64,000 nt of DNA from positions 1 to 64,000 of the forward strand of contig JAKCWG010000823.1 of assembly GCA_021464415.1 (NCBI GenBank). The letters are read 5' to 3'. The notes beneath the pieces were generated by a model that worked only from the letters and a program-made list of their open reading frames with translations, had not been told where the DNA came from and made no database searches. Within the stretch, counting starts at the first letter, position 1. Each line of letters opens with the position of its first letter. The position numbers and the translations under genes are program-made. This DNA is from Lonicera japonica (lineage: Eukaryota > Streptophyta > Magnoliopsida > Dipsacales > Caprifoliaceae). Positions 38,195 to 64,000 of this stretch are shown piece after piece.

Positions 38195-38199
38195 GGAAC

Positions 38200-43218: not shown

Positions 43219-43927
43219 TAATCATTTTGAGTGTTGAATTATTTGATGAGATAATAACTATACCTTGTAATAAATTGCCTTGGATAATAGATTGAATGAG
43301 GCGGTTTGTATACATTTATGGGTCGAAGATTAAAAGTAAATGAATAAAGAAAAAAGCAAATTATAAGTTTTTGTTAAAGTTTAAAAAAACATTACAGTGA
43401 ACTAATCCAATTGTTGCGACACTTTTATCTTTGGTGCTCATTCAGTTCAAATTTTACTTCATTCCTGAAATGCTAAAATTGTAAATACAATTCACACTAT
43501 AACTTTTTTGTAATTCATGTCAAGAGGTTGAATTATAAATTGATGAAATTCAAATTTTCAATGTGAAATTATTATTTTGAATTTAAGAAACGAACAAAAA
43601 TTCGAAACAAACGTGGCATTATTGCATGTGATACTCATTCACATAGTATAAAAATATTTTTTTAATACTAATTAATTGCAATTAGTATAATTAATTTAAT
43701 CTTTTAAGCATTTTTCGTGATGATGGATTTGAGATTTATATATAATTTTTTGTGTATATTTTCTGGCGATATGCATTGTAATACCCCATTGATTAATTCA
43801 ATGTTAATCACGTTCTTTAATCGCGCTTATGTCAAATTCTAACTTTGAGTGATCATCTTTGATTCTGAATGCTTTCTGATGATTCAGACACTCTAAACAA
43901 ATCATGTTAGTCATATTACACACATGT
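43219..43927. other. Spacer between elements B and A
   Basis: No gene. A possible LTR start, TGTAATACCCCATTG, lies at 43777, and its continuation could be beyond element A at 62733. Positions 43923-43927 are CATGT, the target duplication of element A. Confidence 0.5.
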
Positions 43928-44189
43928 TGTGAACACCCCAATCCACGACTCTCGTGCGAATACTGATTTTCTTTAAGCATCCTGCATTTAATCATGAATC
44001 ATCATACATGTAGAAAGACTGATAGGAAAGACTCCAATTTTGGACGCGTTGGGAGTCTAAGATAACCCTAGTTGCCTCTTCGCTTACTAGGACGGGGATC
44101 GACCTGACCGGTCAGGTCGCGGGGTGCGGGGCAGCGCCCCGTTAGAAAATTTGGTTTTTTCCGAGCGCTCCTGCGCATTTTTTTATGAG

Positions 44190-44350
44190 CGAGCCGCACC
44201 CCCCTGTCGCACGCCCAACCGTACGGTTGGCACCTCCTAACCGCACCCCCTAGCCGCACGCCCAACCGTACGGCTACCTGCCAGCCGTACGGCTGGCACA
44301 CCCCTGTCGCACGCCCCAGCCGCACCCCATGCGGCTACCCCTGCGGTTGG
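44190..44350 (+). promoter_or_regulatory. GC-rich palindrome cluster in LTR U3
   Basis: CCGTACGG occurs at 44219, 44266 and 44285. The first is the core of the 16-bp palindrome CCAACCGTACGGTTGG (44215-44230) and the third of CCAGCCGTACGGCTGG (44281-44296). They are separated by 'agccgcacgccc' words. The cluster ends about 35 bp upstream of the TATA box. CGTAC is the core of SBP-box (SPL) factor sites, so SPL-type control is possible but unproven. Confidence 0.6.
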
Positions 44351-44383
44351 CCTCTTTTGGAGCGTTTTTGGCGCAAATGTTGC

Positions 44384-44391
44384 TATAAATA
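44384..44391 (+). promoter_or_regulatory. TATA box of the element A 5' LTR
   Basis: TATAAATA within 'ttgctataaataggaccc'. Transcription of gag-pol should start roughly 30 bp downstream. The identical phrase is in the third LTR at 63286. Confidence 0.75.
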
Positions 44392-45224
44392 GGACCCTTG
44401 GGATCCCATTTTGGGATCATCAACATTGAATAGTATTTTGGGTAAGTAGGAGCTTTGTCAAAGTCTCTAGAAAGTCATTTTTAGAGAAATTCTGAGAGAA
44501 GGCTAGTGAGAGAGAAGGCTAGTGAGAGAAAGCTCTAGAGAGAGAAAACTTTAGAGAGAGAAGGAAGTCAAGGCAAAGTCCTCCTATCTTCTTCAAGCGC
44601 AGCAGGTATAACTTTCTACCAAATCCTTAATTTCAGTACTGCATTTAATTTTAATACAGAAAATTAGATAACTTGCAAAGAAGTTCACTGCTTTCAAAAC
44701 AAATCCTTTCTAAGTTTTACAAGAAATCTAAAACCTGTTTTGACACGTTTTCAAAACAAACAAAAATACAAAAACAGTTTCCAAAAGAAAGGAACTACGA
44801 GACTCTGATTTCATTCTACGAATGAATACGTAGGCGCTCGAAAAGCTCGAGTCTGATTTCAAAATATTATTTTAAACTGAATTTATCCGGAAAGGACTAT
44901 TCTGAAAACCATTCGAACTATTTGCAAGATATCTAAAAATAGGAATTAAATACATGATCCATTAAGAGACCGAAAGGGCGAATTGGGTGCCTAACACCTT
45001 CCCAATTCGTAACGTAGTTCCCGAACCCTAGCAAAGTCAATTTTCAAAATAAATCTCTGGTTTCAAATGTATGAAAGATAGTTCGTTTTCGAATTATCCT
45101 TCGTACGACCTTTTGTTTGTTTTCTCGTAAAACAAACTGGCGACTCTACAAAACAAGTTTTCAAATGAAACCGAGAACGTGGACTCTTTTCTTCTTCTCG
45201 GGGTATGGGTCCTGATTCTCACAG

Positions 45225-45242: not shown

Positions 45243-46258
45243 TGTCGAGAACTAAGCTCTGTTATAATGGATCATATGTTTAATTCCTATTATTTGTTAG
45301 ATATAGGGTTGCAAGCCTTAGTCCTAGGATAACATAGAAGCGATCTAGGTGGATACCCTAATACCTTTATTTGGTAATTATGTGAGGAAAATCTTTTTCA
45401 TAATTAAAATTGTGTAAATTACAGTAACAAACCCTAAAGCATTGATAAATAATGAACTGCCATATTGTTATTTTGCACGCACCCACGTCTTATCATGCAT
45501 TTTCGCGAGTGTGAAATTTACCCTATCAACCTCGGGACCAGAGTCGTGACTAGGCTGTGGACTTGCGGGTCTGCACTAGCCAAAAGCGCCTGGGACCACT
45601 CTCCTTGGCCAAGTACTTACCGAGGTATATAGAGTGACGAGAACACTCACGTACCCGGGATGTATATCAAAAGGTCCTTACACGTACCTGCGCTCTTGAG
45701 GTATATCGTAAGACCTGCCAAATAGGAGGGAGCCTTAAACCTTACCCTCTTCAGCCACGCTTGCATATAGGGGAGTCATCTTAGAACACAAAGATTTTCT
45801 GCATGATTTTAATGACCAACAGTCGTGAGAATCTAGTGAGCGGAAGCCCTGATTCCATGAACAAAGCAACTCATGAGGAGAGACCTTCCCATATTTTCAA
45901 ATGATTTTTCGAAAAAAATTCTTTTCAAAATGATTTCCCAAAACTATAGACGGTCAGGGAACCCATGGAATTCTATTCCTACCCTACCGCTATACGGGAC
46001 TCTCAAGTTGTCGCCGTTGGTCTGTTTTCAATCTCACCTAAAGAAAAACTTTTTTTTGTGTGTTTATTTTCGTCCCGATCGATGTATTTCTGGATAAGGT
46101 CCGGCAATTTCTAAATGATATATTGTTGTTATTTTCCGGGGGAATGCGCGCGATCGAATTTGTCCTTTTTTCCGCAACAGCAGATATTCATCCTGGCCTC
46201 TGTGTGGGCTGGAAGAGATAGCACCGGGAGACTCGTCAGACCAGATTCCTCTGAAAAC
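45243..46258 (+). other. Untranslated leader of element A
   Basis: About 1 kb between the primer-binding site and the gag start. An open frame extends upstream of gag to 46115 in the same frame, but its composition is unlike Gag. The methionine at 46259 is followed directly by Gag-like sequence. Confidence 0.55.
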
Positions 46259-48250
46259 ATGGATCAGAATACCCCGAACCGGAATGTGAACAACCAATTG
46301 AACAATGCAGCGGATCCGCCGCCCGGTCCTTTTTACCCAAACCCGGGAATGCCGCAGAATAATACTGTTGGGGGTCAGCCGCTACATCATACTCCATCTT
46401 TGAATGTTGATCCAAACCTAGCCAGTTCAAGCGGAAACATGAATGCTCCGTTACCGAATCCCGAAGATATGTATCGAATGTTGATGAACTTGAACCAAAG
46501 CATGACCATGTTATTAAGTGACAATAAAAATACTCGTGCCAAGTTGGACGAGTTGGCTAAAGGGCGCATGACAGAATCACCAAGAGAAACTCCGGTTATT
46601 CTACCACCACCGCCGCCACTCTCAATTCATACCGAAGTACCACCGCCATATGAACAGTTGAACCAACCCAAACCCATGCCTGATCCGGTCGGCAATTGGT
46701 TACAACAGGACCTGACCAATCAAGTCCCTCCACAGATGCAACCGGTCCATGAACCATACCACGATCCGTATTATGACCCAATGAGAAGGCCCATGAGTAT
46801 CCAAGGGGAGGGCCCCACGCCAATAGAAACTCACCGGGGGGATAGAGACTTGTCTGAGCTTAAGGAGCAGTTGAAAGCACTTACCCAAAAAGTAGCTGAG
46901 AGTTCGAACGATTTGACCCAGATGCAAAGTTACAACTTATACCCTGAGGCTCGTTATCCCGTGGGTTTTAAGATGCCCTCCATCCCAAAATTTACAGGCA
47001 CTACACCACCAGAACTCCATCTGAAATCTTATGTCCGTTCAATGAGAATTTATGATCTCGGTGAGGCTGAATTAGCCAATTCCTTTCACCTCACTTTGGC
47101 AGGACCAGCCCAGAGTTGGTTTTTGAACCTTGAAAAGCATCGTGTTAGATCATGGTCCGCCATTGTACAAGAGTTTGTGTCACAGTACAAAACTAATGAG
47201 GAACTTAAAGTTACAAGGAAACATCTAGAGATGGCTAAGCAGAAGGAGAATGAGAGTATTAGTGAGTTTGTAACAAGATGGAGGGAACTGGCCGCCCAAA
47301 TGGTGGAGCGCCTAGATGAAGAGGAACAACTCGGAATGATTGTGAAGAATTTGAAACCAGATATTCGGACCCAAATGGGACACCAGTTCTTTGGCAGGTT
47401 CAAAGCCCTACTCCACGTAGGCAACGAAATTGAGGAGGAATTAGCCAAGCAGGCTGAAATCAAAAAATCCGCTTCACAGTACAAGAAGACTTCCACGTCT
47501 GCCATCAATCAAGTTACGTCTTCTGGGTCCTACGGTCGGGGGTATTCCGGCAACCCCTTTGGTCAAAACTCTGTGAAAAACATTGGGGATTTGGGATATC
47601 GTAACAACAACAACAGTAATTTCAGGACATTTGATCAGAATCGCTCATGAGATAGACATTTTTCGCAATTACCGGGACCGTTGGGAAAGGTTTTCGAACA
47701 ACTAAAAGAAGCCGGGATTATGTATCCCATGAATCCGAGGCCATTACCACAACAGATACCACCTCATTGGAACATGAATGAACATTGCGAATATCACCAA
47801 GGCTTCGGACACACTACCGATAGTTGTATGGCCCTGCGACATGCTATCCAGAACTTAATTGATAACAAAAGGATTCCTGACCCGTCAGCCCCGAATGTTG
47901 CAAGGAATCCCCTCCCCAATCACCGGATAAATGCTATCGAGGAGGATTCAGATTTACCAGACCCTGTACTCTTGATTAAACCCGCCGGGAATGCAGAAAA
48001 TGTCGAAGTTTGGAAATTCAGCTGTCCAAAGCCTTCGCCCACAGTCATTCAATATACTCCACCAAGGTCCCAGAAATCCGTTGAAGAAGTCGAGGATGAA
48101 ACATTGTTGGGGTTATCCGTTGATGAAACATGCACCATGCAGTCACAAGAGATAGTTAGCCCAAAAGTTATGGGCTGGATGAAACAAATGCAGTTCATAC
48201 CAGGTTTTGGGCTCGGTAAACAGAATCAAGGGATCGCCCACTTTCCATAG
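46259..48250 (+). pseudogene. gag of element A with one internal stop
   Basis: The frame starts with MDQNTPNRN and has a proline-rich, disordered N-terminus. The capsid (retrotrans_gag-type) domain lies at about 46960-47450, with 'LAGPAQSWFLNLEKHRVRSW' and 'ISEFVTRWRELAAQM'. A TGA at 47648-47650 interrupts it; a CGA-to-TGA change at a CpG is likely. The same frame continues with a zinc-knuckle-like CEYHQGFGHTTDSC (about 47795) and a G-patch-like motif (FIPGFGLGKQNQGI) before a TAG at 48248-48250. Gag would form the virus-like particle. Confidence 0.82.
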
Positions 48251-51200
48251 TTTAAAGGCAACCCGAGGCGACAAGGGCTCGGGTATAACCAAGGAAAAAC
48301 AATAAAAAAGAACACCCATCCAAGAAAGAATTGCTCACAGATAAACATGATCACCTTCAACTGGAACACAGTTTCGCAAGTCAATGAAAGGTCGCCTCCA
48401 ACTCTAGTTGAAACACCTGAAGGGGCAAGTGATCCAGTCGCGACATGGGTCCAACAATTGACCCGTTCTGGGAGAGTGTACCAACCGCCAAATACCAAGC
48501 AACCTATTGATGTCGCTCTTCCCAACGAACCTGCAAAAGACCCGGAAGAAGGGCGTGTTGTTGAACAGTTAAAGAAAACACAAGCCCAAATTTCAATCTG
48601 GGGACTCCTGGTAGCATCCAAGCCACATCGTATGGCACTAATGAGAATGTTAGATGAATCGGTTGTTCCTTTTGAAGCCACCCCAAATGAGTTAACAGCG
48701 ATGATCGCTTCAATGGGGATACAAAAACAAGTTCTTGGGTTTTCTGATGAAGATTTATCACCACTGGGTCGGGATCATAACCAAGCTCTACATATCACCG
48801 TTGTTGCTTATGGAATGTCTATACCGTATGTGCTTGTGAATAACGGTTCTACAATTAACGTATGCCCGTTGAAAACTGCTGTTCGTTTGGGTATTGATTT
48901 AACTGCCATGGAAGAATCACCAGTCACAGTACGAGCATACGATAATACCAAGAGGGAGGTATTAGGTTCCGTCATGCTGAGTATGCAAATAGGACCGGCT
49001 TCATTCACCACTGAGTTTCAAGTCATAGATATCCCTTCGAGCTTTAATTTGTTGTTGGGACGAGTTTGGTTGCATGAGGTTGGCGCACTGCCTTCTTCCC
49101 TTCATCAAAAAATGAAAATACCCTTCAACGGGGATATCATCATCATCAAGGGAGATCCTGAAAGGACAATAGTCCCAAAAAACTCGCCAGTATTGGGAAT
49201 CGGAAGCCAAGATGTCCAACTCGGGGGATTTTCGTATGAGCCAAAGGTGCAAACTCTTACCACACAGACTGTGAATTATCTGCCCCCTGATGATATGTCG
49301 ACCATGAATACGCAAGTAATAAAGATGATGAGGAAAATGGAATTTTTACCGGGGATTGGTTTGGGAAAATATCAAGCCGGCATTGCCCAAATGATCGAAC
49401 CATTCCAACAACCGAGTCCTCTTGCCGGGTTGGGATATGTGGGAGATGTTAGCCGAATGAAAAGTGCCGTATCTGCCGATAGTTCGTTAAACGGATGGTT
49501 CATAAAAGAGGGTGAAGACTTTCCTTACTGCGGGTTTCAGGAACCATGGGTAAATGAAGAAGGGAAAAGACAACCGGGATTAGAAATTTTCTATGAAGAA
49601 GACTTATATATCAGTGAAGGATTTACTCACACCTTCTCATCTCGGTTAAAGATTACCCGGCCACCTGTCGAGCCACTGGAAGAGGAAGATATGCTGGGTA
49701 ATATGTTTGAGGTCATGGCAATTGAGGAAGATTACCTTGGGGATCCTGTGCATCTTATACGCCCTATCGAAAGAAAAAATGAGCAGAGAGAGAGAGATAT
49801 TGATAGAAATGTACGAAATTTAGAATGTATGCTATCTGTGCAAAGTGATGTTTCTATCAATAAAACTGCCAATCTTTTCCCTTACTTTGATTCTTGTGAT
49901 GTTGAAATTATGAATGAAAATTTGAATGATGAGCAGCGAATACAACCCATTGAAGGAGACACGGCCACAATAAATTTGGGAACAACCGATGATATAAAAG
50001 AAATAAAAATTGGGGCCGAATTAAGCCATGATGAAAAAACAGACTTAGAAAATTTGTTGAAAGAGTTTGTTAATGTTTTCGCTTGGTCATATGCTGATAT
50101 GCCGGGTTTAGATGCCATTATTGTGATGCATGAAATACACACTAAACCCGAATGCAAACCTGTCAAGCAAAAGTTAAGAAAACTAGTACCTGAATGGTCG
50201 CTCAAAGTTAAAGAAGAAGTCACAAAGCAATTGGATGTCGGATTCATACGGGTTGTTGAATACCCTACTTGGTTGGCCAACATGGTGCCGGTGCCAAAAG
50301 CCAATGGCAAAGTACGGGTTTGTGTTGATTATCGCAATTTAAATGCTGCATGTCCAAAAGATGATTTTCCACTGCCAAACATTGATCTCATTGTCGACAA
50401 CACTGCAAATCATGCTTTAAAATCATTCGTCGATGGATTTGCCGGGTATAATCAGATCAAAATGCATCCTGATCATCAGGAAAAGACAGCCTTTATCACA
50501 CCATGGGGTACTTATTGTTACACTGTCATGCCATTTGGATTGAAAAATGCCGGGGCCACATATCAGAGAGCCACAACTACTCTATTTCATGATCTGATTC
50601 ATAAGGAAGTAGAAGTGTATGTCGACGACATGATCATCAAATCATTGGACCGGGCAAGTCATGTGGAAACTCTTCGTATTTTCTTTGAACGGCTTATGCA
50701 ATTTCAGATGCGTTTGAATCCTCAGAAATGTGTATTCGGGGTCACCAAAGGCAAGATGCTGGGGTATATAGTCAGCAGAAAGGGAATCGAGGTTGATCCG
50801 GCAAAAGTTAAGGCTATTCAAGAAATGCCAGTTCCTAAAACTGAAAGGGAAATTCGGGGTTTCCTCGGGAGGTTACAGTTCATCAGCAGATTTATTTCAC
50901 AATTGACTCGAACATGTGAACCAATTTTTAAGCTACTCCAAAAGAGTTCGGATGGGCAGTGGAATGAGCAATGCCAGGAAGCGTTCAATAAGATCAAGCA
51001 ATATTTGTCTAATCCGCCACTCTTAGCACCTCCCCAAGTAGGCATTCCATTGATACTATACATGTCAGTCAATGACTCCTCAGTTGGAGCAATGTTGGCA
51101 CAGCATTTGTTGAAAACAAGAACTGAGCAGGCAATATATTACCTCAGTAAAAAGCTTTCTCTGGGAGAACAAAATTATACAGCTTTAGAGAAATCATGCG

Positions 51201-53231
51201 CTGCGTTAGTTTGGGCTACCCAGAAGTTGCGACATTATATGTTGGTATTTTCCGTGATCTTGATCTCTCGTCTAGATCCCTTGCGGTACTTGTTCGAAAA
51301 GCCGATGTTGACTAATCGAATGGCTAAATGGATGTTCCTGCTTTCAGAATTCGACATTTCTTATGTCACTCAAAAAGCCGTCAAAGGGCAAGTCATAGCA
51401 GATCACTTAGCAGGCAATCCAATCATTGATGCCGAGCTACAGGATTTCGAATTTCCCGATGAAAGTATCATGGAGATTACCAAAGACGATGAATGGAAAA
51501 TGTATTTTGATGGGGCTTGTAATCGGAATGGGAATGGAATTGGGATCCTGTTAATTTCGCCAGACCAGACACATGCACCTATGTCTTTTCGATTAGAATT
51601 TCCCTGTACCAACAATATCGCGGAATACGAAGCTTGTATTGTCGGGTTAGAAATTGCTTTGCAGAAAGGGGTTCGTAAAATTCAAGTGTTTGGGGATTCC
51701 GCTCTCATTATTCATCAGATCTTGAAAAAATGGAAGATCAAAGAGGAAAAACTTGTGCCCTTCTTAACCCAACTCGAAGAAACTTCTGAGAAATTTGAGT
51801 GCATTGAATTCTTCTACATCCCAAGAACACAGAACAATTTTGCTGATGCCTTAGCTACTCTGGCCTCGATGATTGAAATTCCGGGGGAGAAAGAAGAAAT
51901 TCAGATTCAGATTCAAAGGCGAATAAATCCGGTATTTTGCCTATCACTCGATGTTGAACGTGGAAATAAGATCGATCAGAAGGTTTGGTACTACGATATC
52001 TGGAAATTACTCAAGCATAATGAATACCCATCACATGCTGACAAAACCACTCGGGTCACGCTTCGCCGCCTCGCATCCCGGTTTATCATTTGTGCCGGAA
52101 AACTATACCGAAGAAATGATGACGGTATACACCTTCAATGCCTCGATGAAGAAAAGTCCCGAGCAATGATGGAACAAATCCACAGTGGAGAGTGTGGCCC
52201 ACATATGAGCGGTCATACATTGGCACGAAAGATAGTTCGTCAAGGGTATTACTGGTTAACGATGCAAAAAGATTGTTTTGAATACGTCAAAGGGTGTCAC
52301 CAATGTCAAATATACGCCAAGGCACAGAAGCTCCCTCCAAAAGAATTATACCCTATGACATCTCCTTGGCCGTTTTCAATCTGGGGTATTGACATAATCG
52401 GTAAGATCTCGCCAAAAGGAAGTAATGGGCATGAATACATCCTAGTAGCTATCGACTATTTCACCAAATAGGTTGAGGCCGAGTCTTACAAGGATTTGAA
52501 TGCCCGAAAGGTGGCACGATTCATCCGACACAACATCATATGCCGATACGGGGTATCGCATGAGATAATATCCGATAATGGTACGCATTTTGAAGGCACA
52601 GCCAACGAAATCATGGAAGAATATGGAATCAAACGCCACAAATCCTCACCATACCGCCCACAAACTAATGGGGCCGTGGAGGCTGCTAATAAGAATTTGA
52701 AGAATATCATTAGCAAAATGGTTAAATCCGGTAGAGATTGGCCCGAAAAGCTCCCGTACGCACTTTGGGGATATCGAACTACTGAGAGGGTTTCTACGGG
52801 ATCAACGCCTTTTTCACTTACATATGGCATGGAAGCGGTTTTACCAGTGGAAATGGAAATACCTTCTTTACGGGTTATCCTGGAAAATCAAGTTACTGAG
52901 AGTAATTGGGTAAAGGCTCGGTATGAAGAGTTGGCAATGATTGATGAAAACCGATTGAGGGCTTCATATCAACATCAAGGGTATCAAAAACGTGTTGCCA
53001 AAGCCTTTAATAAAAAAAATCCGAGACAGAAGCATCATACTTGGAGACTTAGTCCTCAAAGAAATTCGTGAACCAGCCCGAGACCCAAGAGGAAAATTCT
53101 CGCCAAAGTGGACAGGCCCTTATATTGTTACTAAAATCCTATCCGGGGGTGCCGTTCTCCTTACCGACATTGATGGCCAAGAGTTAAACTTACCAGTCAA
53201 CCTCGACCGATTGAAGAAATACTATCAGTAA
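48251..53231 (+). pseudogene. pol of element A (protease, RT, two RNases H, integrase) with lesions
   Basis: The frame is the same as gag. Protease: YVLVNNGSTINVCPL near 48830 has Asn (48839-48841) where the catalytic Asp is expected. A second G-patch-like motif (FLPGIGLGKYQAGI) is near 49350. Reverse transcriptase spans about 50040-50780, with VCVDYRNLNAACPKDDFPLP and YVDD at 50618-50629. The Ty3-type RNase H lies at about 51050-51400. The archaeal-type RNase H lies at about 51490-51860 (MYFDGACN, NIAEYEACIVGLEIA, VFGDSALII, NNFADALA). Integrase: zinc-binding domain at about 52170-52320 and core with GIDIIG, SDNGTHFEG and QTNGAVEAANK. TAG at 52469-52471 replaces the Trp of the DYFTKW-type motif. 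An extra base in the A-run at about 53012-53020 shifts the frame; the C-terminus with WTGPYIV continues to 53231. Confidence 0.88.
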
Positions 53232-53510
53232 AAAATTGTATCCATGAACTACGAAGACCTGAGCCCCGAAAAAAAAAAAAAAAAAAAAAAAACGGGGAAA
53301 CGTAGGCAACCTGAATATCAGGCCCGGTCTATTCATTGTAATAATATTCATTCATTTGGATGCAAGAAGAAAGGCAGAAAGAGATTTTCCATACATCAAA
53401 AAGTTCTTTCGTACAAGATAACCTACATCAGTTCTTACATACTTTCCCTATATATTTTACCTACCTAATCCCAGAAAACTTTCATAAAGAAGCTGCCTAC
53501 CACACCTAAC
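53232..53510. other. Spacer after pol with an A24 run
   Basis: An A-run (53269-53292) followed by CGGGGAAACG follows the pol stop. The rest is non-coding and lies just beyond the 3' end of the antisense gene. Confidence 0.6.
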
Positions 53511-54746
53511 CTAACCGTCATCAGCAGAATATAAGATCCTCTCTCGATCCATGGTCTGATATGAAGCAAGCACTGTCTCATCAGTCACCGGCGAATCTGC
53601 AAACCGAAACCACCTCATCATCATAGGCTCATGCTCAGTGGTCTGTCGAACTCGACGCCAAATATGCAGCACAATATCAGAACGGGTCACCTGGGTCATG
53701 CCAACCTCTCCTCCATGAAATCGCCGAACAAAGCGGGTAGACCAAAGACCTCGTAGGGTCGTCTCTAGTCTCGGGGTAATAGGAAGAGCGATCGAAGAAA
53801 AGTCTCTCAGCGGAAGGGGTATACTCAGGGGAACACCGAACTGCCTCGTCAGCCGTCCGGGGATGTAGAATGATGTCTCTCTCAAACCACGAAACCGAAG
53901 GTAGTTCTGCCCACCCATACTCATGATCATGGTCCTCATACGCCACCATGGAACCTCCCAACGAATCGAAGAAGAGGACTCAGAAAAACGAACAACCCAA
54001 TCATATGATGACAGACGATGAATCTGGGCGTAATCAGGACGCTGGAAGAAGTGCCGAGAATCCCAGGGAAGCCGAGTCTCCAGATACCGAAACCTCTCAG
54101 TAACCCACATGTACAGTAGATATGGGCTACCTCGAAAATGACTAAGTCGAGACTGAACCACGGCATCCAAACCATTCAGTGTCTCCGCCAGTAAGATGGG
54201 AGTCACCAAATGGCCGCGTCTAGCCTCAGATACAACTCGGATAATCAGAGGGTCTACCAGAATAGCATCATCGGTAACCAAGAGCATCTGAGAAAAAGCA
54301 AAAATCATACAAGCAGAAGTCCGACCTGAATAATAAGCCGGGTCGTCGCCATGATGAAGGAAAAAATCTGCCAAGTGACGCAGATGGAGTTGACCGTCGA
54401 CTATCATAGGCCGGCACTCACTCTCCCGCAGACCCAGAAACTCCGCCAGCATAACACGAGGACTCCTAGCATCTCGCAAGGAAGCCAGTGGCCATGAAAC
54501 ATCCTGCCGCATCAGTAGTGTGAACTCCTCAATCGTCGGACACAACTCGTCCAAACCGATGCGGAAACAGTGGTCCTCAGGATCCCAGAACTCAGCAATA
54601 CCAAGCAAAAAAGAAAAGTTGATGTCATGAGAACACCAGCGATGGAGGTGGCTCAGATCGCCCCAGTTGAGACCACAGTCGGCCTCAGCCAAGGACACGA
54701 AATCAGACAAAAGGGAGAAAGAAGCGTGGGTATGAAAGGTAGACAT
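53511..54746 (-). CDS. Antisense 411-aa PMD/DUF7745-like protein of element A
   Basis: A single exon of 411 codons, uninterrupted, antisense to gag-pol. The N-terminal third has a short tract with 'LLGIAEFWDPEDHCFRIG' and then 'LCPTIEEFTLLM', the pattern of plant proteins related to the mobile-domain (PMD/aminotransferase-like) superfamily and annotated as DUF7745. The C-terminal half is Arg/Trp-rich ('WEVPWWRMRTMIMSM'). There is no signal peptide or membrane segment. The start is 73 bp downstream of a minus-strand TATAAATA, itself next to a CCGTACGG cluster. Family membership is by motif resemblance. Biochemical function is unknown; cellular PMD proteins (MAIN, MAIL1) act in silencing and genome stability. 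Confidence 0.65.
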   Translation of the reverse strand: MSTFHTHASFSLLSDFVSLAEADCGLNWGDLSHLHRWCSHDINFSFLLGIAEFWDPEDHCFRIGLDELCPTIEEFTLLMRQDVSWPLASLRDARSPRVMLAEFLGLRESECRPMIVDGQLHLRHLADFFLHHGDDPAYYSGRTSACMIFAFSQMLLVTDDAILVDPLIIRVVSEARRGHLVTPILLAETLNGLDAVVQSRLSHFRGSPYLLYMWVTERFRYLETRLPWDSRHFFQRPDYAQIHRLSSYDWVVRFSESSSSIRWEVPWWRMRTMIMSMGGQNYLRFRGLRETSFYIPGRLTRQFGVPLSIPLPLRDFSSIALPITPRLETTLRGLWSTRFVRRFHGGEVGMTQVTRSDIVLHIWRRVRQTTEHEPMMMRWFRFADSPVTDETVLASYQTMDRERILYSADDG

Positions 54747-54818
54747 GGTAATAAAGAAAGAAGAAGCTATAGGGTGAATAGTGACTTTGATGATGGAAAA
54801 AAGGACAAATTCGCGCTC

Positions 54819-54826
54819 TATTTATA
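54819..54826 (-). promoter_or_regulatory. TATA box of the 411-aa antisense gene
   Basis: On the minus strand 'gctataaatagagcgc' shares GCTATAAATAG with the LTR promoter. It is 73 bp upstream of the start codon at 54746. Confidence 0.7.
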
Positions 54827-54837
54827 GCATAACTGCA

Positions 54838-54950
54838 CATGCCAACCGCACGGTTGGGCCCCAACCGTACGGCTGGCTGGCCAACCGTGCGGCTGGCTCC
54901 CAACCGTACGGCTACCCCATGCGGGTGGGGCGTGCGGTTGGCTCTCCCCC
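54838..54950 (-). promoter_or_regulatory. CCGTACGG cluster upstream of the 411-aa antisense gene
   Basis: CCGTACGG occurs at 54865 and 54904, with near relatives (CCAACCGCACGGTTGG, CCAACCGTGCGGCTGG). It sits directly upstream of the minus-strand TATA box, like the cluster in the LTR. This suggests a duplicated U3 module. Confidence 0.6.
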
Positions 54951-55426
54951 TTTGGTTAAAATCTTCCATTTTTCAAATCTTCTTTACAATACATCATGAC
55001 ACGAATATTGCCAGACTTTGTTCAGGAAGAACGATCCATCATAGCATGCATATAGATTTGATAATTACTTGCCAACATATGTACTTAACCATTTTTTGCA
55101 ATTTAACTTGATTACACTTAATCGCATTCTTTCAACGCATAATCAAATAAGTAATAACTTCGCCACCACATAATCATTTTTCAATTGCACTCACAAATAA
55201 CATTTACATCACGTCACACACAAACATATTTTCAAAATAAACATAAATATTTTATTCATAAATTAAAACCGAACACATCGATAAACCAACATTTTTCTTA
55301 ACAAATAAACATATTTAAATTAACCACTAAATTAAAATAAGTTTTTCCTAAAAATAAAATACGCCTAAGTTAACTACCTAAATTAAAATAGTTTTTTCTA
55401 AACCAAACGCCGAGCCGTCAGAACCA
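54951..55426. other. AT-rich spacer between the two antisense genes
   Basis: No coding sequence. It is AT-rich in contrast to the GC-rich genes on either side and probably includes the 3' UTR of the PMD gene. Confidence 0.5.
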
Positions 55427-58400
55427 TCAACGCTGAGGAGAAGGAGGAGGATCCATCGTCCGCGGGCGCTTCGCCTCTGTCTCTCCAGCACCCTCCGCTG
55501 GACTCTCTGAAACCGTGCGACCTGCGCCCTGATGAGAAGAAGCAAGCCGGGAGGTGCGCCTCGACTGCTGAACCGACTGAGAAGGAACCGCCGATCGGGA
55601 CCGCGAACGTGACGGATGGTAGGTAGCAGTCGTATCGCCCGCCAAGCGTCTGCTGTACCGCCCCATGTACTCCACCGGGAAAGGAGCCGCAAACGTCAGC
55701 AGTCTGTACATGTTGAAGTAGCTCCTCAGTAACTCAGCTACCTCGCGAAGAAGGAATGAGCCCCTCTGTCAAAACCAAATTACCAATCAGTAACATTCAT
55801 AAATCAACACATATGCTTAACTGTTTAAAAGAAACCTTACCTCCTCGCCCGAGACGTGTGCTAAGACCCCCATCCGCTCATCGCCCTCAGGTATGTCAGG
55901 GATCCGGTATTGCTTGGGTAGACCGAAATCCAAGTAAGGGATATCCCGAGGGTACTCCGGGATCGAGTACGACGCCAACGCCCCACCCTCCGGAGCCTGT
56001 GACGGACCAGCTCCGCCAGCGCCACCTACCGGGGGTATGTCCTCCCCGGTGTCCTCTCCCGTCTCCAACTCGGGCGCCACCGCCTTCCCCTTCCCTTTGT
56101 CGCCACCCTCACCCACCGGCGTCTGGCCTATGCCTGCTTCCGCCCCTAACTGCACTTCCCTCTCTCCTAGCTCCCGGAAGACGATCCCACGGGCCGCACC
56201 TGATGATGGGGTCGACAGAGAGTACGGCCTCAATCCCACCGACCCGGCACCTGGCGACCCGACAGGCGTGCGCAGCAACGGCGAGAAGGACACATGATGA
56301 ACCCAATCCATGTCGCCCGACCCATACACGGGTGATGATCCCGACATCGACCCACGACCCCCGGGTGTCTGCGCCGACTCCAGCATCTGCCGTATATCCT
56401 CCGACGACAACTGCGGTGTCCTCCCCATGGCCGGTGAGATAGGTGGCCTAGACACGGGACTCCGCCCTCCGACCGGACTCCTCCCACCCCTACTCGCCCT
56501 ACCTCGTCCAGGCGAAACCGCAGCAGCCAGCTCCTCCCCTACTCCCCCGCCGGGCCCTACTGGGGGCGCCCCACCGTTGCCCCCTCCCAACGGAACCTCC
56601 TCCGAACCCTCGTCATCCTCCTCCTCCACCTGCGGCGGCTCCACGTCCCTCTCCCCATGCGGATCCTCATCATATGAATCCGCAATCCCCTTGGCCCTCC
56701 GGTTCGGCGCCGGTGCAGGCTGCTGTGGGACCCGTTGCGAGATGTACAACTGCCCCCGGATATACATCGTGTCTCCCCCGAGGGCCGCATACCTCGCATA
56801 TATCACCCTGCCTCGCACCCCCTTCATCTCCCTCATCAGGTACCGGTGAGCAAACATCCCGTACTCCCCCTCCACCAACAGACCCTCCATCGGTACGCCT
56901 CCCAGGAACAGAGCTCTCTCCTCCGCAGTCAGCATGATCGGCCGCCTCATCGCCACTGGGGGCCATGCCGGAACCCGGAATCCCAACCCAGGAGTATGCT
57001 GCCGCACCACGCGCTCCCCCAGGTAGAACGTAGCGCCATACTCATGCACGAATAAACGCCTCGAACGTGCCGCAACCAACGCATCTGCATACCCCCACTG
57101 CTGCGTCACGTATGCCGGCCATGGGCTCCACTGAACCTGCCACGTCAAACATACACCAACCATAACTTAACTGTTCTTTTTAAATTTCATTAATTTCATT
57201 TCATACCTGGTCAAGCTGTAGCCCAGAAACGTCGCCTGCACTGACGTCCGGGGTCAGATATCGATACACCCCAACTATGTTCCCGCTGTAGTATCGTCGG
57301 AAAAGCGGGAACTCATCTGCGAAAGTCGGATGCAGGTGGATCTGACCAATACCCTGGTGGGTATGCGCAATAAACCACATCTGTCACAAATTACCACAAT
57401 TAATAAAACCGTCGGTTTTTATATAATAATCACATTCTTTCCTCGTAAAAAGATAAATGAATTTTTAAATAACTTACCTCCCAAAGCGTGACCAACCCGC
57501 GGTGGTTCAGCTCCATGTGACGGCACACTAGGTCCATCGACTCATACAGCACCGCCAGTACGTATCCTCCCCAGGCAAAAGTGTACAGCTGGTCGAAGAA
57601 CCGCAGATAAGGCAGCCACCACAACCGTAGGTTGTCGCCGCCCCGCGCATAGAAGAAATCATGCAGCACGAGCAGCAGAAAGCATCGGGATAGCTGCCGC
57701 ACCTCCTGGCGTGTCATCGGACCATCGCCAAACCTCCCACTCTCGGCCTCGATATGCTGCACCATCGCCGTGTGAGATATCCCATCCGCCACAATCCTGC
57801 TAGGCCTCCATCCTAGTGCCGCTCCCATACCATCTAGAGTAATGCGTACGCGGGGGTTAGGCACCAGAGCCTCCCCCCCAAATGGCAGCCCCGTCAACAC
57901 GAACACGTCCTCGGGGGTCAACGTCATCTCTCCCCAACTCCAATGGAACGTGTGTGTAGTATCCCACCATCTCTCCCCCAACACCGTCGGCAGGCTCACT
58001 GATCTCTGGAACTCTCCACCCGGAAGCACCTCGATAAACCTCCCAAATGGGGTCGCACTCAGATATGCTCTCACCAGCGGCGGTAGCTGATCCCGAAGCT
58101 CAGGCGCAGCGCGCGTGATGCCACGACAACGCCCGATCCTCTGTTACATCACGGATTTTAATAAGGCTCACTAACAAACATTTTTCAAAAATAAATTATG
58201 TTGAGCATATCTATTATGGCAAGTAATTATTAAATCTACCACATTTCATGCATATCTCTTCATTGCATTCTTTCAAAAATCACATAATTTGAAATACTAA
58301 TATTAGAGCATACCCTAGTCCGGCGGCGGATCTCGTGTGCCGCAGGCTCCATCAACAGCCACTCTCGCCCCTCTCCCGACGAGATTAAGGGCACGTCCCG

Positions 58401-58619
58401 GTACATCGCCCGCTGTAGCGATCCGTCTGCCCCCAGTGGCCCCTCCCAGGCCACACCCTCCCAGTCGTCATGATGTGACGCGCAGATCAGGCGCCCATCC
58501 ATCATCGCGGTGATCGACTCCACCTCGTCCCCCGGGAGTAGCTCCGGCACCTCCCCTCCCTCTGGTGGGCCTCCCATCATCATATACACGAAGATCGAAA
58601 GTAGTCTCGCAAATGCCAT
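55427..58619 (-). CDS. Five-exon antisense plant mobile domain (PMD)-like gene of element A, intact frame
   Basis: Exons on the minus strand: 58619-58314, 58140-57478, 57380-57207, 57136-55841 and 55765-55427. All four introns (173, 97, 70 and 75 bp) are GT-AG and phase 0. The joined frame has 925 codons and no internal stop. Exon 2 carries the PMD core: a 'RWWDTTHTFHW' stretch, then GEMTLTPEDVFVLTGLPFGG, then a helical region with 'LLVLHDFFYARGGDNLRLWW' and 'GYVLAVLYESMDL'. Exon 3 (58 codons) and the start of exon 4 continue the domain. The rest is Gly/Pro/Ser/acid-rich and probably disordered, and exon 5 ends Arg/Ser-rich with 'AKRPRTMDPPPSPQR'. PMD proteins such as MAIL1/MAIN act in silencing, and PMD sequences are known inside plant retrotransposons. 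It is GC- and CpG-rich, unlike its surroundings. The function in this element is unknown. Confidence 0.82.
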
Positions 58620-58729
58620 CGCTCACACTCGTCTCAAATACTCACTAAATGTTTTTGAAAAATCAGATATTTATATGCTAGAGAGAAAGATCGCAAGAAG
58701 AAGTGACGAACATGCTTTGAACAGGCCAC

Positions 58730-58737
58730 TATTTATA
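58730..58737 (-). promoter_or_regulatory. TATA box of the five-exon PMD gene
   Basis: The minus strand reads 'ttttctataaatagtggcc', with TATAAATAG as in the LTR. It lies about 111 bp upstream of the start codon at 58619. Confidence 0.7.
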
Positions 58738-58744
58738 GAAAATA

Positions 58745-58920
58745 GGGGCCAGCCGCAGGCTAGCCAACCGTACGGCTAGCCCCCAACCGTGCGGTTGGCT
58801 GCCAGCCGTACGGCTGGGGGGTCAAACCCTGCGGCTACCTCGTGCGGCTAGCCCGTGCGGCTACCACCAACCGCACGCCCTAGCCGCACACCCTGCGGCT
58901 ACCCCGTGCGACTACCCTCA
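58745..58920 (-). promoter_or_regulatory. CCGTACGG cluster upstream of the PMD gene
   Basis: CCGTACGG occurs at 58768 and 58806 (the latter in CCAGCCGTACGGCTGG), with many 'agccgcacgccc' and 'tgcggctacc' words. It begins about 8 bp upstream of the TATA box. Composition and words match the LTR U3 cluster. Confidence 0.62.
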
Positions 58921-58935
58921 ATTTTGACCAGTTTG

Positions 58936-58976
<41 letters not shown>

Positions 58977-58988
58977 GGGTGGGGACAG
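58936..58988 (+). other. A38 run followed by a G-rich purine tract
   Basis: Thirty-eight A residues (58936-58973) run into GGGGGGTGGGGACAGA. The whole resembles a polypurine tract. It marks the boundary between the PMD promoter region and the 3' untranslated region. It may be an internal plus-strand primer site or simple slippage. Confidence 0.4.
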
Positions 58989-59796
58989 ACTTTGAATCAA
59001 CTCTTCCCAAGACACAAGAGGACCAAGACTCACACACACACGCACGAGATGACTAATCAATGCCCGAAGTTTGGCACTCTAAAGTCTGTGGAGGAACCGA
59101 AATTCAATAGGATGGATCCATTGTCCGGAAGGCTCGAATCTGATTAATAAACAGGGAAGGTGTAAAAGAGGAATCGGGTACCAGAAAAAATTGAAAAAGT
59201 AGAAAAGGGAAAATCCCGTTGGTCCAAGAGAGGGAAAAGTAAGATAAACAGAAATGACGAAAATCGACAGGGAGAGCCACACTAAGAGCGACAGCTGTGC
59301 CAAAAGGCGGAGGGCTACATCTTAGGTGAGTAAGGCTCCTGTTTTGGAAAAATCCGCGAAAGAAAAAGCAAGGAAAATCCGAAAGCCCAAAAAATATAAG
59401 GCCGGATAATCAAAAGAGGGAGCAATAAGGGTATCGAAAAACAGAAAACGATACAGGACCAGCATCTTCCCTGTGAAAAAAATCAGAGAATAGCTTGAAG
59501 GCTATTGAGAATTCCAGACGAATTTCCATCCCCATGACCAAAGAGAAGAAAACTGAGGGTAGAGAGATGCCAAATCCCAAAAATCCATGCACAGCGGTCT
59601 GAAAGTTGCTGCAAAAAAAAAAAAAAAAAAAAAAAAAAAGTTGATTCAGAAGTCCGATTCCCAATAAAGGCCAAAACTGAGGGTAGAAAGGAAAGGAACG
59701 AAAAGCACTTCCCCTCGCAAGCAATTCTCTCTAACATATCTTTTTTCGGAAAATCAAACAAGGCAGTGTATGAGTGATAGAATCATGGCAACAAGG
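58989..59796. other. Non-coding 3' region of element A before the tandem array
   Basis: No gene is supported. Another A-run (27 bases, 59613-59639) is present. The minus-strand open frames here are short and low in complexity. Confidence 0.5.
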
Positions 59797-60990
59797 CCAA
59801 GAAGGGAATTTTTCGAATTCCTGAAAAGATAGGAATTCTTCGCATTCCCCACGAAGGGAATTTTTCGAATCCCTGAAAAGATAGGAATTCTTCGCATTCC
59901 CCACGATGGGAATTTTTTCGAAACCCCTTTCCCCAAGAAGGGAAATAACGACTCCACGTGTTCCCCACGAAGGGAATTTTTCGAATTCCTGAAAAGATAG
60001 GAATTCTTCGCATTCCCCACGATGGGAATTTTTCCGAAACCCCTTTCCCCAAGAAGGGAAATAACGACTCCACGTGTTCCCCACGAAGGGAATTTTTCGA
60101 ATTCCTGAAAAGATAGGAATTCTTCGCATTCCCCACGATGGGAATTTTTCCGAAACCCCTTTCCCCAAGAAGGGAAATAACGACTCCACGTGTTCCCCAC
60201 GAAGGGAATTTTTCGAATCCCTGAAAAGATAGGAATTCTTCGCATTCCCCACGATGGGAATTTTTCCGAAACCCCTTTCCCCAAGAAGGGAAATAACGAC
60301 TCCACGTGTTCCCCACGAAGGGAATTTTTCGAATCCCTGAAAAGATAGGAATTCTTCGCATTCCCCACGATGGGAATTTTTCCGAAACCCCTTTCCTCAA
60401 GAAGGGAAATAACGACTCCACGTGTTCCCCACGAAGGGAATTTTTCGAATTCCTGAAAAGATAGGAATTCTTCGCATTCCCCACGATGGGAATTTTTTCG
60501 AAACCCCTTTCCCCAAGAAGGGAAATAACGACTCCACGTGTTCCCCAAGAAGGGAATTTTTTGAATTCCTGAAAAGATAGGAATTCTTCGCATTCCCCAC
60601 GATGGGAATTTTTCCGAAACCCCTTTCCCCAAGAAGGGAAATAACGACTCCACGTGTTCCCCAAGAAGGGAATTTTTTGAATTCCTAAAAAGATAGGAAT
60701 TCTTCGCATTCCCCACGATGGAAATTTTTTCGAAACCCCTTTCCCCAAGAAGGGAAAAAACGACTCCACGTGTTCCCCAAGAAGGGAATTTTCCGGATTC
60801 CTGAAAAAGTAAGAATTCTTCGCATTCCCCACGATGGGAATTTTCTCCGATCCCCTTTCCCCATGAAGGGAAATAACCTTTACTGCGCATTCCCCATGAA
60901 AGGAATGGCTTTATCCACACATTCCCCACGAAGGGAATCTGATTCACATTTCTCCCAAAGATTGAAATTTCTCTTAGTACCATACCCCAC
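59797..60990 (+). repeat. 116-bp tandem array in the 3' region of element A
   Basis: 'TTCCCC' unit starts occur at 59845, 59961, 60077, 60193, 60309, 60425, 60541, 60657 and 60773, exactly 116 bp apart. Degenerate copies flank the array. Each unit contains three related sub-blocks ('ttccccacgaagggaa', 'ttccccacgatgggaa', 'ccccaagaagggaaat') and the inverted repeat GAATTCCT/AGGAATTC. The array is open in all three minus-strand frames, giving a 435-codon repeat polypeptide, which I treat as a by-product. Such 3' UTR arrays in Tat/Ogre elements are a known source of satellite DNA. Confidence 0.88.
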
Positions 60991-61316
60991 GAAAGGATAC
61001 ACCACAAGACCAAGAATATTCTCTCACTTCTCCCTAAGAAATGGGAAAACTTCAAGAACACTCATTTTTCACCACGATCATTTGGATTCGGTAAAATGCC
61101 AAGCCCCCCTCGTGTAGTCCTACACACTGAGGGTGGTGTGCTGTGACGCCCTGAGTGATGAGTACTCCCTTGTGTGGAGGAATGGTAGCTCGAGCGATGA
61201 GTACTCCCTTGTGTGGAGGAATGGTAGCTCAAAGGGGGCATCCACACCGGAAGTTGGGGGATCCTTGGAGACCCATATAAGTAAGATATGGTCGCTAATT
61301 AAGTACGAGGCCTTTT

Positions 61317-61425
61317 GGGTAGCTCACTGGCTTCGGATCCCATGAGAACTCCGAAGTTAAGCGTGCTTGGACCAGAGCAATCCAGGGATGGGTGACCCCC
61401 TGGGAAGCTAGTCGTGAGCTCCCAG
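61317..61425 (+). ncRNA. 5S rRNA-like segment, Cassandra 5' LTR
   Basis: This resembles plant 5S rRNA from 'cggatcccatgagaactccg' onward. The internal Pol III promoter is visible: A box AGTTAAGCGTGCTTGG (61355-61370), intermediate element GATGGGTGACC (61387-61397) and C box CTGGGAAG (61401-61408). The 5' part and 3' end differ from true 5S, so this is a TRIM promoter and not a ribosomal gene. Confidence 0.85.
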
Positions 61426-61593
61426 AAACAAAGACGTGAGGGTAGATGTCCTGGGGCTGAGGCCTGGCTAGGACGCTACCCAGAGCGGACAATATCGTAC
61501 TGAGGTGCGACCGGGTCGTTACAAATGGTATCAGAGCGGACCCCATAGAGTACGGTGTGTCGACGAGGACGTCGATTCCCTTGGGGGGAAGGA

Positions 61594-61721: not shown

Positions 61722-61807
61722 AAAGGGGGCATCCACACCGGAAGTTGGGGCATCCTTGGAGACCCATATAAGTAAGATATGGTCGCTAATTAAGTACGAG
61801 GCCTTTT

Positions 61808-62239: not shown

Positions 62240-62732
62240 TGTGAACACCCCAATCCACGACTCTCGTGCGAATACTGATTTTCTTTAAGCATCCTGCATT
62301 TAATCATGAATCATCATACATGTAGAAAGACTGATAGGAAAGACTCCAATTTTGGACGCGTTGGGAGTCTAAGATAACCCTTGTTGCCTCTTCGCTTACT
62401 AGGACGGGGATCGAGCGCTAGGGGGTGCGGTAGCCGCATGGGGTGCGGCTGGGGCGTACGACAGGGGTGTGCCAGCCGTACGGCTGGCAGGTAGCCGTAC
62501 GGTTGGGCGTGCGGCTAAGGGGTGCGGTTAGGAGGTGCGGCTAGGGGGTGCGGTTAGGAGGGCGTGCGGCTAGTAAGCGAAGAGGCAACAAGGGTTATCT
62601 TAGACTCCCAACGCGTCCAAAATTGGAGTCTTTCCTATCAGTCTTTCTACATGTATGATGATTCATGATTAAATGCAGGATGCTTAAAGAAAATCAGTAT
62701 TCGCACGAGAGTCGTGGATTGGGGTGTTCACA
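62240..62732. repeat. Foldback 3' end of element A (inverted LTR starts)
   Basis: Positions 62240-62402 repeat the first 163 bp of the LTR in the forward direction. Positions 62570-62732 are the exact reverse complement of those 163 bp. The 167-bp middle is an inverted copy of the U3 CCGTACGG cluster region with rearranged edges. R and U5 are missing. Both arms read 'cccttgttgcc' where the 5' LTR has 'ccctagttgcc', so the arms were copied from each other. The target duplication CATGT follows directly at 62733. Confidence 0.9.
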
Positions 62733-62864: not shown

Positions 62865-64000
62865 TGTGAACACTCCAATCCACGACTCTCGTGTGAACCT
62901 AACAAGCATTCCGCATCAAGTGTTGAGTCATCATGCATATAGAAGACCATTAGGAAAAATCCTTATTTTTCGAGCGCGCCGGGAATCTACCACAACCTGG
63001 TTGCCACTTCGCTTACTAGGATGGGGATCGACCTGCCCGGACAGGTCGCGGGGTGCGGGGCAGCAAGCCCGAGCCGCACGCCCTAGCCGCACAGTCGCCT
63101 CCTAGCTGCATACCCTAGCCGCACAGTTGGCTCCCAACCGTACGGTTGGCTTCGAGTCGCACGCCCCAGCCGCACGCCCCAGCCGCATGCCCTAGCCACA
63201 CGCCCCAACCGCACGCCCTAGCGGCACCCCCTGCGGCTACCCCCTGATGTTGGTCTCCTTTGGAGCGTTTTTGGCGGATTTTTGCTATAAATAGGACCCT
63301 TGGGATCCCATTTGAAAGCATCAACACTCGATAGTGTTTCTAGTAAGTGGAGATTCTGTCAAAATTACTAGAGAGTCATTTTTAGAGAATTTCTGAGAGA
63401 GAAAGTTTTAAAGAGAGAATCTTAGAGAGAGAAAGTCTAGAGAGAGAAATGAGCAAACAAGCAGATTTTCTTCTTCAAGCGCATCAGGTACGCTTTTCTA
63501 CAACTTTTCTAATTTCAATATCCGTTTTAATATAGAAAATTAGATAACTTGCAAAGAAGTTCATTGCTTTCAAGATAAATCCTTTCTAAGTTTTTACAAA
63601 GAAATCTAAAATCCGTTTTGACACGTTTTCAAAACAAAACAAAATACCAAAACAGTTTCCAAACAAACCGAACTACGAGACTCTGATTCCATTCTACGAA
63701 TGAATACGTAGGCGCTCGCAAAGCTCGAGTCTGATTTCAAAATATAATTTTAAACTAAATCTATCCGAAAAGGACTATTCTGAAAACTATTTAAACTACT
63801 TGCAAGATATCTAAAATAGGAATTAAATACATGATCCATTAAGAGACCGAAAGGGCGAATTGGGTGCCTAACACCTTCCCAATTCGTAACGTAGTTCCCG
63901 AACCCTAGAAAAGTAAATGTTTAAATGAATCTCTGGTTTTAAACGTATGAACAATAATTCGTCTTCGCATTATCCTTCGTGCGATCTTTTGTTTGTTTTC
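62865..64000 (+). mobile_element. Third LTR of the same family, cut by the window edge
   Basis: It starts TGTGAACACTCCAATCC and follows the element A LTR throughout, with substitutions and small gaps, up to the 'cttttgtttgttttc' that matches 45110-45124. The right end is outside the window, so it could be the 5' LTR of another element or a solo LTR. CCGTACGG occurs at 63138 within CCAACCGTACGGTTGG (63134-63149). Confidence 0.85.
63286..63293 (+). promoter_or_regulatory. TATA box of the third LTR
   Basis: TATAAATA in 'ttgctataaataggaccctt', identical in context to 44384. The GC-rich U3 cluster lies upstream at about 63065-63240. Confidence 0.7.

What the first reader, a model, noticed from the sequence alone, without database searches (positions are those of the whole stretch)
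55427..58619. Intact five-exon PMD gene on the antisense strand of a retrotransposon whose gag-pol is broken
Seen: five exons with four GT-AG phase-0 introns join into 925 uninterrupted codons, with a TATA box and start codon in the right places. The gag-pol of the same element has three stops, a frameshift and a mutated protease site. Retained CpG content over 3 kb is unusual for a silenced element. Known: PMD proteins (MAIN, MAIL1) act in plant silencing, and PMD sequences occur in retrotransposons. Inference: the captured gene is under selection, or was captured recently, and may counter host silencing or serve the mobility of non-autonomous copies.
Basis: partly seen in the sequence, partly recalled or inferred. 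Interest (0 to 1): 0.87.

Follow-up and report, generated by a model that had tools for sequence, protein, structure and literature searches.

The report
Retrotransposon with shared promoter motif arrays
A plant retrotransposon carries two backward-facing genes of a transposon-linked protein family, and the start sites of both genes and of the element itself share the same unusual DNA motif array, which hints that the element may run its own control circuit.

Summary
On the minus strand, five exons with four GT-AG phase-0 introns encode 925 codons; the spliced protein matches Pfam PMD (2.4e-25); a TATA box lies 119 nt before the ATG. gag-pol has three in-frame stops and a frame change. PMD genes are an established feature of Ogre elements (57% in one survey), so recent capture is unlikely. 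The insertion looks young (3 differences in 285 bp of LTR sequence), so intact PMD beside broken gag-pol is unremarkable and shows no selection in this copy.

All ten CCGTACGG sites in the window lie in these arrays or in LTR pieces (0.12 expected); 26 8-mers occur in all three promoters (random triples: at most 3). This suggests an element-wide regulon, perhaps read by its own antisense proteins, as with VANC anti-silencing. Binding, expression and other copies are untested: genome search and structure prediction were never available.

The parts
43923..43927 (.). target-site duplication CATGT, left copy (the other copy is at 62733-62737)
   Evidence: identical 5-mers at both ends of 43928-62732
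43928..45134 (+). 5' LTR, starts TGTGAACACC; end approximate
   Evidence: matches 62240-62414 (174 of 175) and, less closely, 62865-64000; PBS-like TGGCGACTC at 45138
44190..44345 (+). U3 motif array (CCGYACGG palindromes and RCCGYAC half-sites) upstream of the LTR TATA box at 44383-44392
   Evidence: 10 half-sites in the 260 bp before the TATA box against 0.38 in shuffles, none of 2000 as high
45138..45146 (+). primer-binding-site-like TGGCGACTC; tRNA-Arg assignment rests on recall
   Evidence: PBS of Ogre elements reported as tRNA-Arg in PMC9289625 (passage)
46115..53071 (+). gag-pol, stop-to-stop stretches; order RT, RNase H, second RNase H (RVT_3), integrase; three in-frame stops, frame change near 53.0 kb
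53511..54746 (-). second antisense gene: 411 aa, DUF7745 (PF24924), weak PMD similarity; single open frame
   Evidence: 8.5e-10 for DUF7745, 9.2e-6 for PMD, the latter below its cut-off (on the stop-to-stop frame 53511-54821)
54818..54827 (-). TATA box CTATAAATAG of the DUF7745 gene, 81 nt before its first in-frame ATG
54842..54937 (-). motif array of the DUF7745 promoter, 19-bp units
   Evidence: TRF period 19 at 54842-54913; 7 half-sites against 0.15 in shuffles, none of 2000 as high
55427..55765 (-). PMD gene exon 5, stop included
55841..57136 (-). PMD gene exon 4
57207..57380 (-). PMD gene exon 3
57478..58140 (-). PMD gene exon 2, core of the PF10536 match
   Evidence: 1.5e-23 for its stop-to-stop frame alone
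58314..58619 (-). PMD gene exon 1 with ATG
58729..58738 (-). TATA box CTATAAATAG of the PMD gene
58764..58917 (-). motif array of the PMD promoter, 19-bp and 13-bp units
   Evidence: TRF; 9 half-sites against 0.20 in shuffles, none of 2000 as high
59845..60877 (+). [quoted passage not shown]
62240..62732 (.). 3' terminus: start of the 3' LTR (62240-62414) followed by inverted U3 pieces (62429-62538, 62570-62732), ending in the inverted LTR start
   Evidence: arms 163 of 163 identical; TSD at 62733-62737
62865..64000 (+). related diverged LTR (78%), probably of a second element cut by the window end; carries the same kind of array and TATA box (63285)

Best explanation
This is a young, probably non-autonomous copy of an Ogre-like Tat-clade Ty3/gypsy retrotransposon. 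Between pol and the 3' LTR it carries two antisense genes, a five-exon PMD gene and a one-exon DUF7745 gene, each with its own promoter. Those two promoters and the LTR promoter share one architecture: an array of CCGYACGG palindromes (commonest 16-bp form CCARCCGYACGGYTGG) and half-sites, then CTATAAATAG, then the presumed start site. Shown: the gene models, the arrays, and their position on the upstream side of the TATA box whichever strand is transcribed. Inferred: one or both antisense proteins, alone or with host partners, recognise the array and keep all three promoters active or unmethylated. Because such a factor would act in trans on the array, a copy with broken gag-pol could still supply it or benefit from it. 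The introns can persist because they read as introns only in the antisense transcript, while the element replicates through the sense RNA.
For: Gene model, and PMD match running across two exon junctions. Second antisense gene. 31 shared 9-mers for LTR-PMD and 31 for LTR-DUF7745 upstream segments; at most 4 for 3000 random element segments, at most 7 and 6 in 500 shuffles each. CCGTACGG: 10 sites in 64 kb, 0.12 expected, none of 100 shuffles as high, all 10 in arrays or LTR pieces. 44 of 52 RCCGYAC half-sites lie in the arrays and LTR pieces. 26 8-mers common to the three promoters, 17 of them found nowhere else outside the promoters and the 3' LTR regions; at most 3 in 4462 random triples; flanks share only 0-3 9-mers per pair. 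Zero half-sites in the 260 bp downstream of each TATA box, 4 of 4 promoters, the second LTR included. Literature: antisense proteins of Tat-type elements proposed as regulators (PMC11963269; PMC7264820). VANC anti-silencing proteins bind short motifs arrayed in non-coding regions of their own transposon (PMC5735166, passages). MAIN, MAIL1 and PP7L are needed for expression of genes with a promoter motif (PMC7156037, PMC9899485, passages).
Against: No binding, expression, methylation or splicing data. No second copy of the element's internal region could be examined. 8 of the 52 half-sites lie outside the arrays: four in the PMD coding region, one in each LTR of the other element in the window, two elsewhere. 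Only 8 of the 14 full sites listed fit the 16-bp form exactly (my count). The palindrome contains the GTAC core bound by host SBP-box factors (PMC7560695, passage), so the factor may be the host's. The Arabidopsis 'DOWN' motif CATGCAGTTT linked to PMD proteins is absent from the window (0 exact; 3 one-mismatch sites, none in the arrays). The arrays also fold strongly as RNA (z -4.2, -6.2, -3.3). No DNA binding by a PMD protein is shown in what I read.
Confidence: 0.42

Rival explanations
1. The arrays are binding sites for a host transcription factor, for example SBP-box (SPL) proteins. The element uses one host factor to switch on all three promoters together, and the antisense proteins do something else.
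For: The palindrome centre is CGTACG with the GTAC core of SBP-box sites (PMC7560695, passage). All three promoters and a second LTR share the arrays.
Against: Many sites are CCGCACGG or AGCCGCAC and lack GTAC. The 16-bp dyad is longer than a GTAC core. CCGTACGG occurs nowhere else in the window, the NLR gene region included.
Confidence: 0.27
2. The arrays are a tandem-repeat family that spread inside the element by slippage and template switching and have no regulatory role.
For: 19-bp and 13-bp tandem units. Part of the LTR array is the worst-aligned 100-bp block between the two LTRs (42 of 90 identical columns), which suggests fast turnover.
Against: The arrays lie on the transcription-upstream side of the TATA box in 4 of 4 cases, with zero half-sites in the 260 bp downstream. 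Flanks are not shared. Palindromes are spaced 19-20 bp in the DUF7745 promoter (3 of 3 spacings) and mostly in the PMD promoter (2 of 3, the third 47).
Confidence: 0.13
3. The arrays act as RNA structures in the sense genomic RNA, for example packaging or dimerisation, because all three would lie in its 3' part.
For: Strong hairpins, z -4.2, -6.2 and -3.3; none of 200 shuffles of each folds as well.
Against: A palindrome array would be expected to fold well anyway. This reading does not predict the position just upstream of each TATA box on both strands.
Confidence: 0.1
4. One reading: a PMD gene captured recently, or kept intact in this copy by selection for countering silencing.
For: Intact 925-codon gene beside a broken gag-pol.
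Against: PMD is a frequent feature of Ogre elements. Intactness in a young copy is expected by chance.
Confidence: 0.08

Closest known systems
Ogre and Retand elements (Tat clade, Ty3/gypsy) with antisense extra ORFs (PMC6317226, PMC11963269, PMC7264820)
   Same: Second RNase H between RNase H and integrase, long pol-3'LTR region with antisense ORFs and tandem repeats; PMD domain frequent in Ogre
   Different: Two antisense PMD-like genes, one with four introns, and a motif array shared by LTR and both antisense promoters, which I did not see described in the parts read; no intron-like spacer between gag-pro and pol
Maize Grande gene23 (recounted in PMC7264820)
   Same: Antisense gene between pol and 3' LTR with its own upstream promoter; nuclear protein reported
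   Different: No PMD named and no array shared with the LTR mentioned in the parts read
VANDAL/VANC anti-silencing (PMC5735166 passages, PMC10398659 abstract)
   Same: Short motif arrayed as tandem repeats in the non-coding DNA of the transposon that encodes (there) or might encode (here) its reader; arrays turn over fast
   Different: VANDAL is a DNA transposon (recalled); binding shown there, not here; different motif; no sequence comparison of the proteins was made
MAIN/MAIL1/PP7L (PMC7156037, PMC9899485, passages)
   Same: PMD proteins linked to promoters with a DNA motif and to transposon silencing
   Different: Host genes; DOWN motif CATGCAGTTT absent here; whether they touch chromatin is stated to be unknown

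Membership tests
Plant mobile domain family (PF10536) | Profile match above the gathering score | tested here: met
   89.9 bits against 34.9, 2.4e-25
DUF7745 (PF24924), second antisense gene | Profile match above the gathering score | tested here: met
   38.6 bits against 26; its PMD match (25.5 bits) is below that family's cut-off of 34.9
Tat clade Ty3/gypsy (Ogre/Retand branch) | Second (archaeal-type) RNase H between RNase H and integrase | tested here: met
   RT_RNaseH 933-1034, RVT_3 1086-1204, Integrase_H2C2 1300-1355 in the pol frame; defining order from PMC6317226. That RVT_3 equals the aRH domain is my reading
Ogre lineage | Position in RT/RH/INT phylogeny | not testable with these tools
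   No plant reference domains reached
Ogre lineage | gag-pro and pol ORFs separated by an intron-like spacer | tested here: not met
   gag and pol lie in one frame apart from stops; hence filed only as Ogre-like
Ogre lineage | PBS for tRNA-Arg | tested here: inconclusive
   TGGCGACTC at 45138; tRNA sequence recalled, no tRNA gene found in the window
VANC-type anti-silencing system | Motif arrayed in the element's non-coding regions and rare elsewhere | tested here: met
   within this window only
VANC-type anti-silencing system | Element protein binds the motif and causes loss of methylation | not testable with these tools
   needs EMSA, ChIP-seq, bisulfite data

The most novel reading that the evidence does not exclude
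A retrotransposon with a self-contained regulon: antisense PMD-superfamily proteins read a palindrome array present at the LTR and at their own promoters. They thereby activate or un-silence the whole family in trans, including copies that cannot make gag-pol. This would give the antisense genes of Tat-clade elements a function.
Probability: 0.35. Interest if true: 0.83.

Novelty: new variant of a known kind. Interest (0 to 1): 0.6.

Why it matters
Antisense genes are frequent in plant Tat-clade retrotransposons, and the papers I read state that their function is unknown (PMC7264820; PMC11963269). A motif array shared by the LTR and by both antisense promoters gives a concrete cis target to test. 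If the antisense proteins read it, this would be a retrotransposon counterpart of VANC anti-silencing. It would also suggest what TE-derived host PMD proteins, whose mode of action is called largely unclear (PMC9899485), originally did.

Tried and rejected
Relatives: the search for homologous proteins with the PMD protein scored 8000 candidates, 0 at E<=0.001. Viral-contig scans for PMD and DUF7745 and a genome-contig scan for PMD gave 11, 7 and 81 pattern matches and 0 confirmed relatives; the tool warns that records of the window's own genome may be left out. PDB sequence search with exon 2: 3 rows, best E 0.22. So no dN/dS or cross-copy test was possible.

Rejected: recent capture; selection inferred from intactness; the DOWN motif as the shared site (0 exact). 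Not supported: direct sequence similarity between the DUF7745 protein and PMD exon 2 (best BLASTP E 0.27; only a weak profile link). Also rejected: 62865-64000 as this element's own 3' LTR. It is 78% identical overall with no purine-rich tract before it, while 62240-62414 is 99.4% identical to the 5' LTR and a 5-bp TSD fits 43928-62732. The TSD reading is likely, not certain, because ACATGT is itself palindromic and the inverted match runs a few bases into the left flank.

Prior-art searches: 2 papers; 18; 1; 3; DUF7745, 0 papers; 143, 15 listed; 150 hold one of the strings, 20 listed, none by title on a retrotransposon promoter; 19, 12 listed. Neither these listings (titles and abstract starts) nor the passages I read describe the shared array. 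Steinbauerova et al. 2011 and Gomez-Orte et al. 2013 were not seen, only cited by others. A bacterial-type promoter/terminator scan is uninformative for a plant.

Full report
WHAT IS THERE. The five-exon gene is real as a sequence feature. Shuffled exons of the same dinucleotide content would carry about 29 in-frame stops in total, against none observed. The spliced protein matches Pfam PMD from residue 151 to 428 (2.4e-25), running across the exon 2-3 and 3-4 junctions. That supports those two junctions modestly: 89.9 bits against 84 for exon 2 alone, and exons 3 and 4 alone match nothing. Exons 1 and 5 have no domain match, so their support is the open frame and the splice sites. Exons are GC-rich and introns AT-rich. 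A TATA box precedes the ATG by 119 nt and AATAAA follows the stop at 55256.

THE ELEMENT. The host DNA is plant: NLR-type ORFs (Rx_N, NB-ARC, LRR) lie at 19640-24517. The element has a 5' LTR from 43928, a PBS-like TGGCGACTC at 45138, and gag-pol on the plus strand with RT, RNase H, a second RNase H (RVT_3) and an integrase zinc-binding domain in that order. This is the order reported for Ogre and Retand elements (PMC6317226, passages). Then follow the antisense DUF7745 gene, the antisense PMD gene, a 116-bp tandem array, and a 3' end at 62732. The 3' end is odd: the LTR start (62240-62414) is followed by inverted U3 pieces and ends in the inverted LTR start, flanked by a CATGT duplication. 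A second, 78% identical LTR starts at 62865 and leaves the window.

AGE AND THE INTACTNESS ARGUMENT. The non-redundant part of the LTR comparison covers 285 bp with 3 differences, about 1%. The stretch is short, so by my estimate the true value could be several-fold lower or up to about 3%. With a recalled plant rate of 1.3e-8 per site per year, 1% is about 0.4 million years. At per-copy divergences of 0.4 to 1% the model gives 0.4-1.2 expected stops in PMD (P of none 0.29-0.68), 0.2-0.8 in DUF7745 and 1.1-3.9 in gag-pol. Three stops in gag-pol and none in PMD is therefore unremarkable. The long open frame does imply constraint in the lineage before this insertion, but says nothing about this copy. 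CpG retention is likewise uninformative: o/e is 0.95 in the PMD locus and 0.71-0.77 in three gag-pol pieces, but 0.98 in the integrase end and 1.01 in the 5' LTR.

THE SHARED PROMOTER MODULE. The text upstream of the PMD gene, the DUF7745 gene and the LTR start site is built from the same words. CTATAAATAG occurs five times in the window: 5' LTR, second LTR, PMD, DUF7745, and one unrelated site at 1697-1706. CCGTACGG occurs ten times, 0.12 expected: three in the 5' LTR, two at each antisense promoter, two in the 3' U3 piece, one in the second LTR. The wider half-site RCCGYAC occurs 52 times, 44 of them in these arrays and LTR pieces; the other eight are four in the PMD coding region, one in each LTR of the 26.5-38.2 kb element, and one each at 12986 and 61550. 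Without choosing any motif, the 260 bp upstream of the TATA boxes share 31 9-mers (LTR-PMD), 31 (LTR-DUF7745) and 34 (PMD-DUF7745). 3000 random element segments share at most 4 with the LTR, and 500 shuffles each at most 7 and 6. 26 8-mers occur in all three promoters, against at most 3 in 4462 random triples. Regions further upstream, or downstream of the TATA boxes, share only 0-3 9-mers per pair. Half-sites lie 18-212 bp upstream of the TATA boxes in 4 of 4 promoters, with none in the 260 bp downstream. Full palindromes are spaced 19, 20 and 19 bp in the DUF7745 promoter and 47, 19 and 19 bp in the PMD promoter. Of the 14 full sites listed there, 8 fit CCARCCGYACGGYTGG exactly (my count). 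TRF finds 19-bp and 13-bp units independently. Between the two LTRs, part of the array is the worst-aligned 100-bp block (42 of 90 identical columns); the next block of the array has 58 of 83, and a block outside it (44528) 60 of 95. Both LTRs nevertheless hold the same words in the same place.

HOW IT MOST LIKELY WORKS. The three promoters are most simply read as responding to one factor. The most economical candidate is a protein encoded by the element, PMD or DUF7745 or both, because within the window the full sites are confined to this element's promoters and LTR pieces and to a related LTR. That is the logic of VANC proteins, which bind short motifs arrayed in the non-coding DNA of their own transposon and remove silencing (PMC5735166, passages; PMC10398659, abstract). 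Host PMD proteins MAIN and MAIL1, with PP7L, are needed for expression of genes whose promoters carry a motif; whether they touch DNA is unknown (PMC7156037 and PMC9899485, passages). That motif, CATGCAGTTT, is absent here, so the analogy is of kind, not of site. A host SBP-box factor with a GTAC core (PMC7560695, passage) is the main rival; an RNA role is possible because the arrays fold strongly. Antisense transcripts could also feed small RNAs: PMD genes of tea yield phased siRNAs (PMC10673657, passages).

KNOWN VERSUS NEW. Known: PMD in 57% of Ogre elements; antisense ORFs and tandem repeats between pol and 3' LTR (PMC11963269, parts 1-3 of 5; PMC7264820, parts 1-2 of 3); an own promoter for an antisense gene (Grande, recounted). 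Not seen in the parts I read or in the listings: two PMD-like antisense genes on one element, four introns in one of them, and an array shared by the LTR and both antisense promoters. Two central older papers were not seen, so priority is uncertain.

LIMITS. One copy, one window. The genome search and the structure predictor were never available. No relatives were found in the collections searched, which are mainly prokaryotic and viral by their descriptions.

Noticed in passing
62240-62737: The element's 3' end is an inverted U3-to-U3 structure (arms 163 of 163 identical) flanked by a CATGT duplication, as if an aberrant cDNA with a U3 end at both sides had been integrated.
   Followed up: partly
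61319-61413 and 61800-61913: Two 5S rRNA-like stretches (35.6 and 39.1 bits, gathering score 38) inside two 371-bp blocks of the element's 3' region that are 98.9% identical.
   Followed up: partly
53511-54746: Second antisense gene (DUF7745) with its own TATA box, ending about 440 bp from the last gag-pol stop-to-stop stretch.
   Followed up: yes
62865-64000: Diverged related LTR (78%) about 130 bp beyond the element's end, with the same kind of motif array and TATA box; the rest of its element would lie outside the window.
   Followed up: partly
59845-60877: 116-bp tandem repeat, 8.9 copies, 96% matches.
   Followed up: no
26555-27895 and 36859-38199: Another direct-repeat pair (99.5% identical), probably LTRs; two ORFs between them had no Pfam match. 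It has no CCGTACGG and one half-site per repeat.
   Followed up: partly
19640-24517: NLR disease-resistance-like ORFs (Rx_N, NB-ARC, LRR) separated by about 2 kb.
   Followed up: partly
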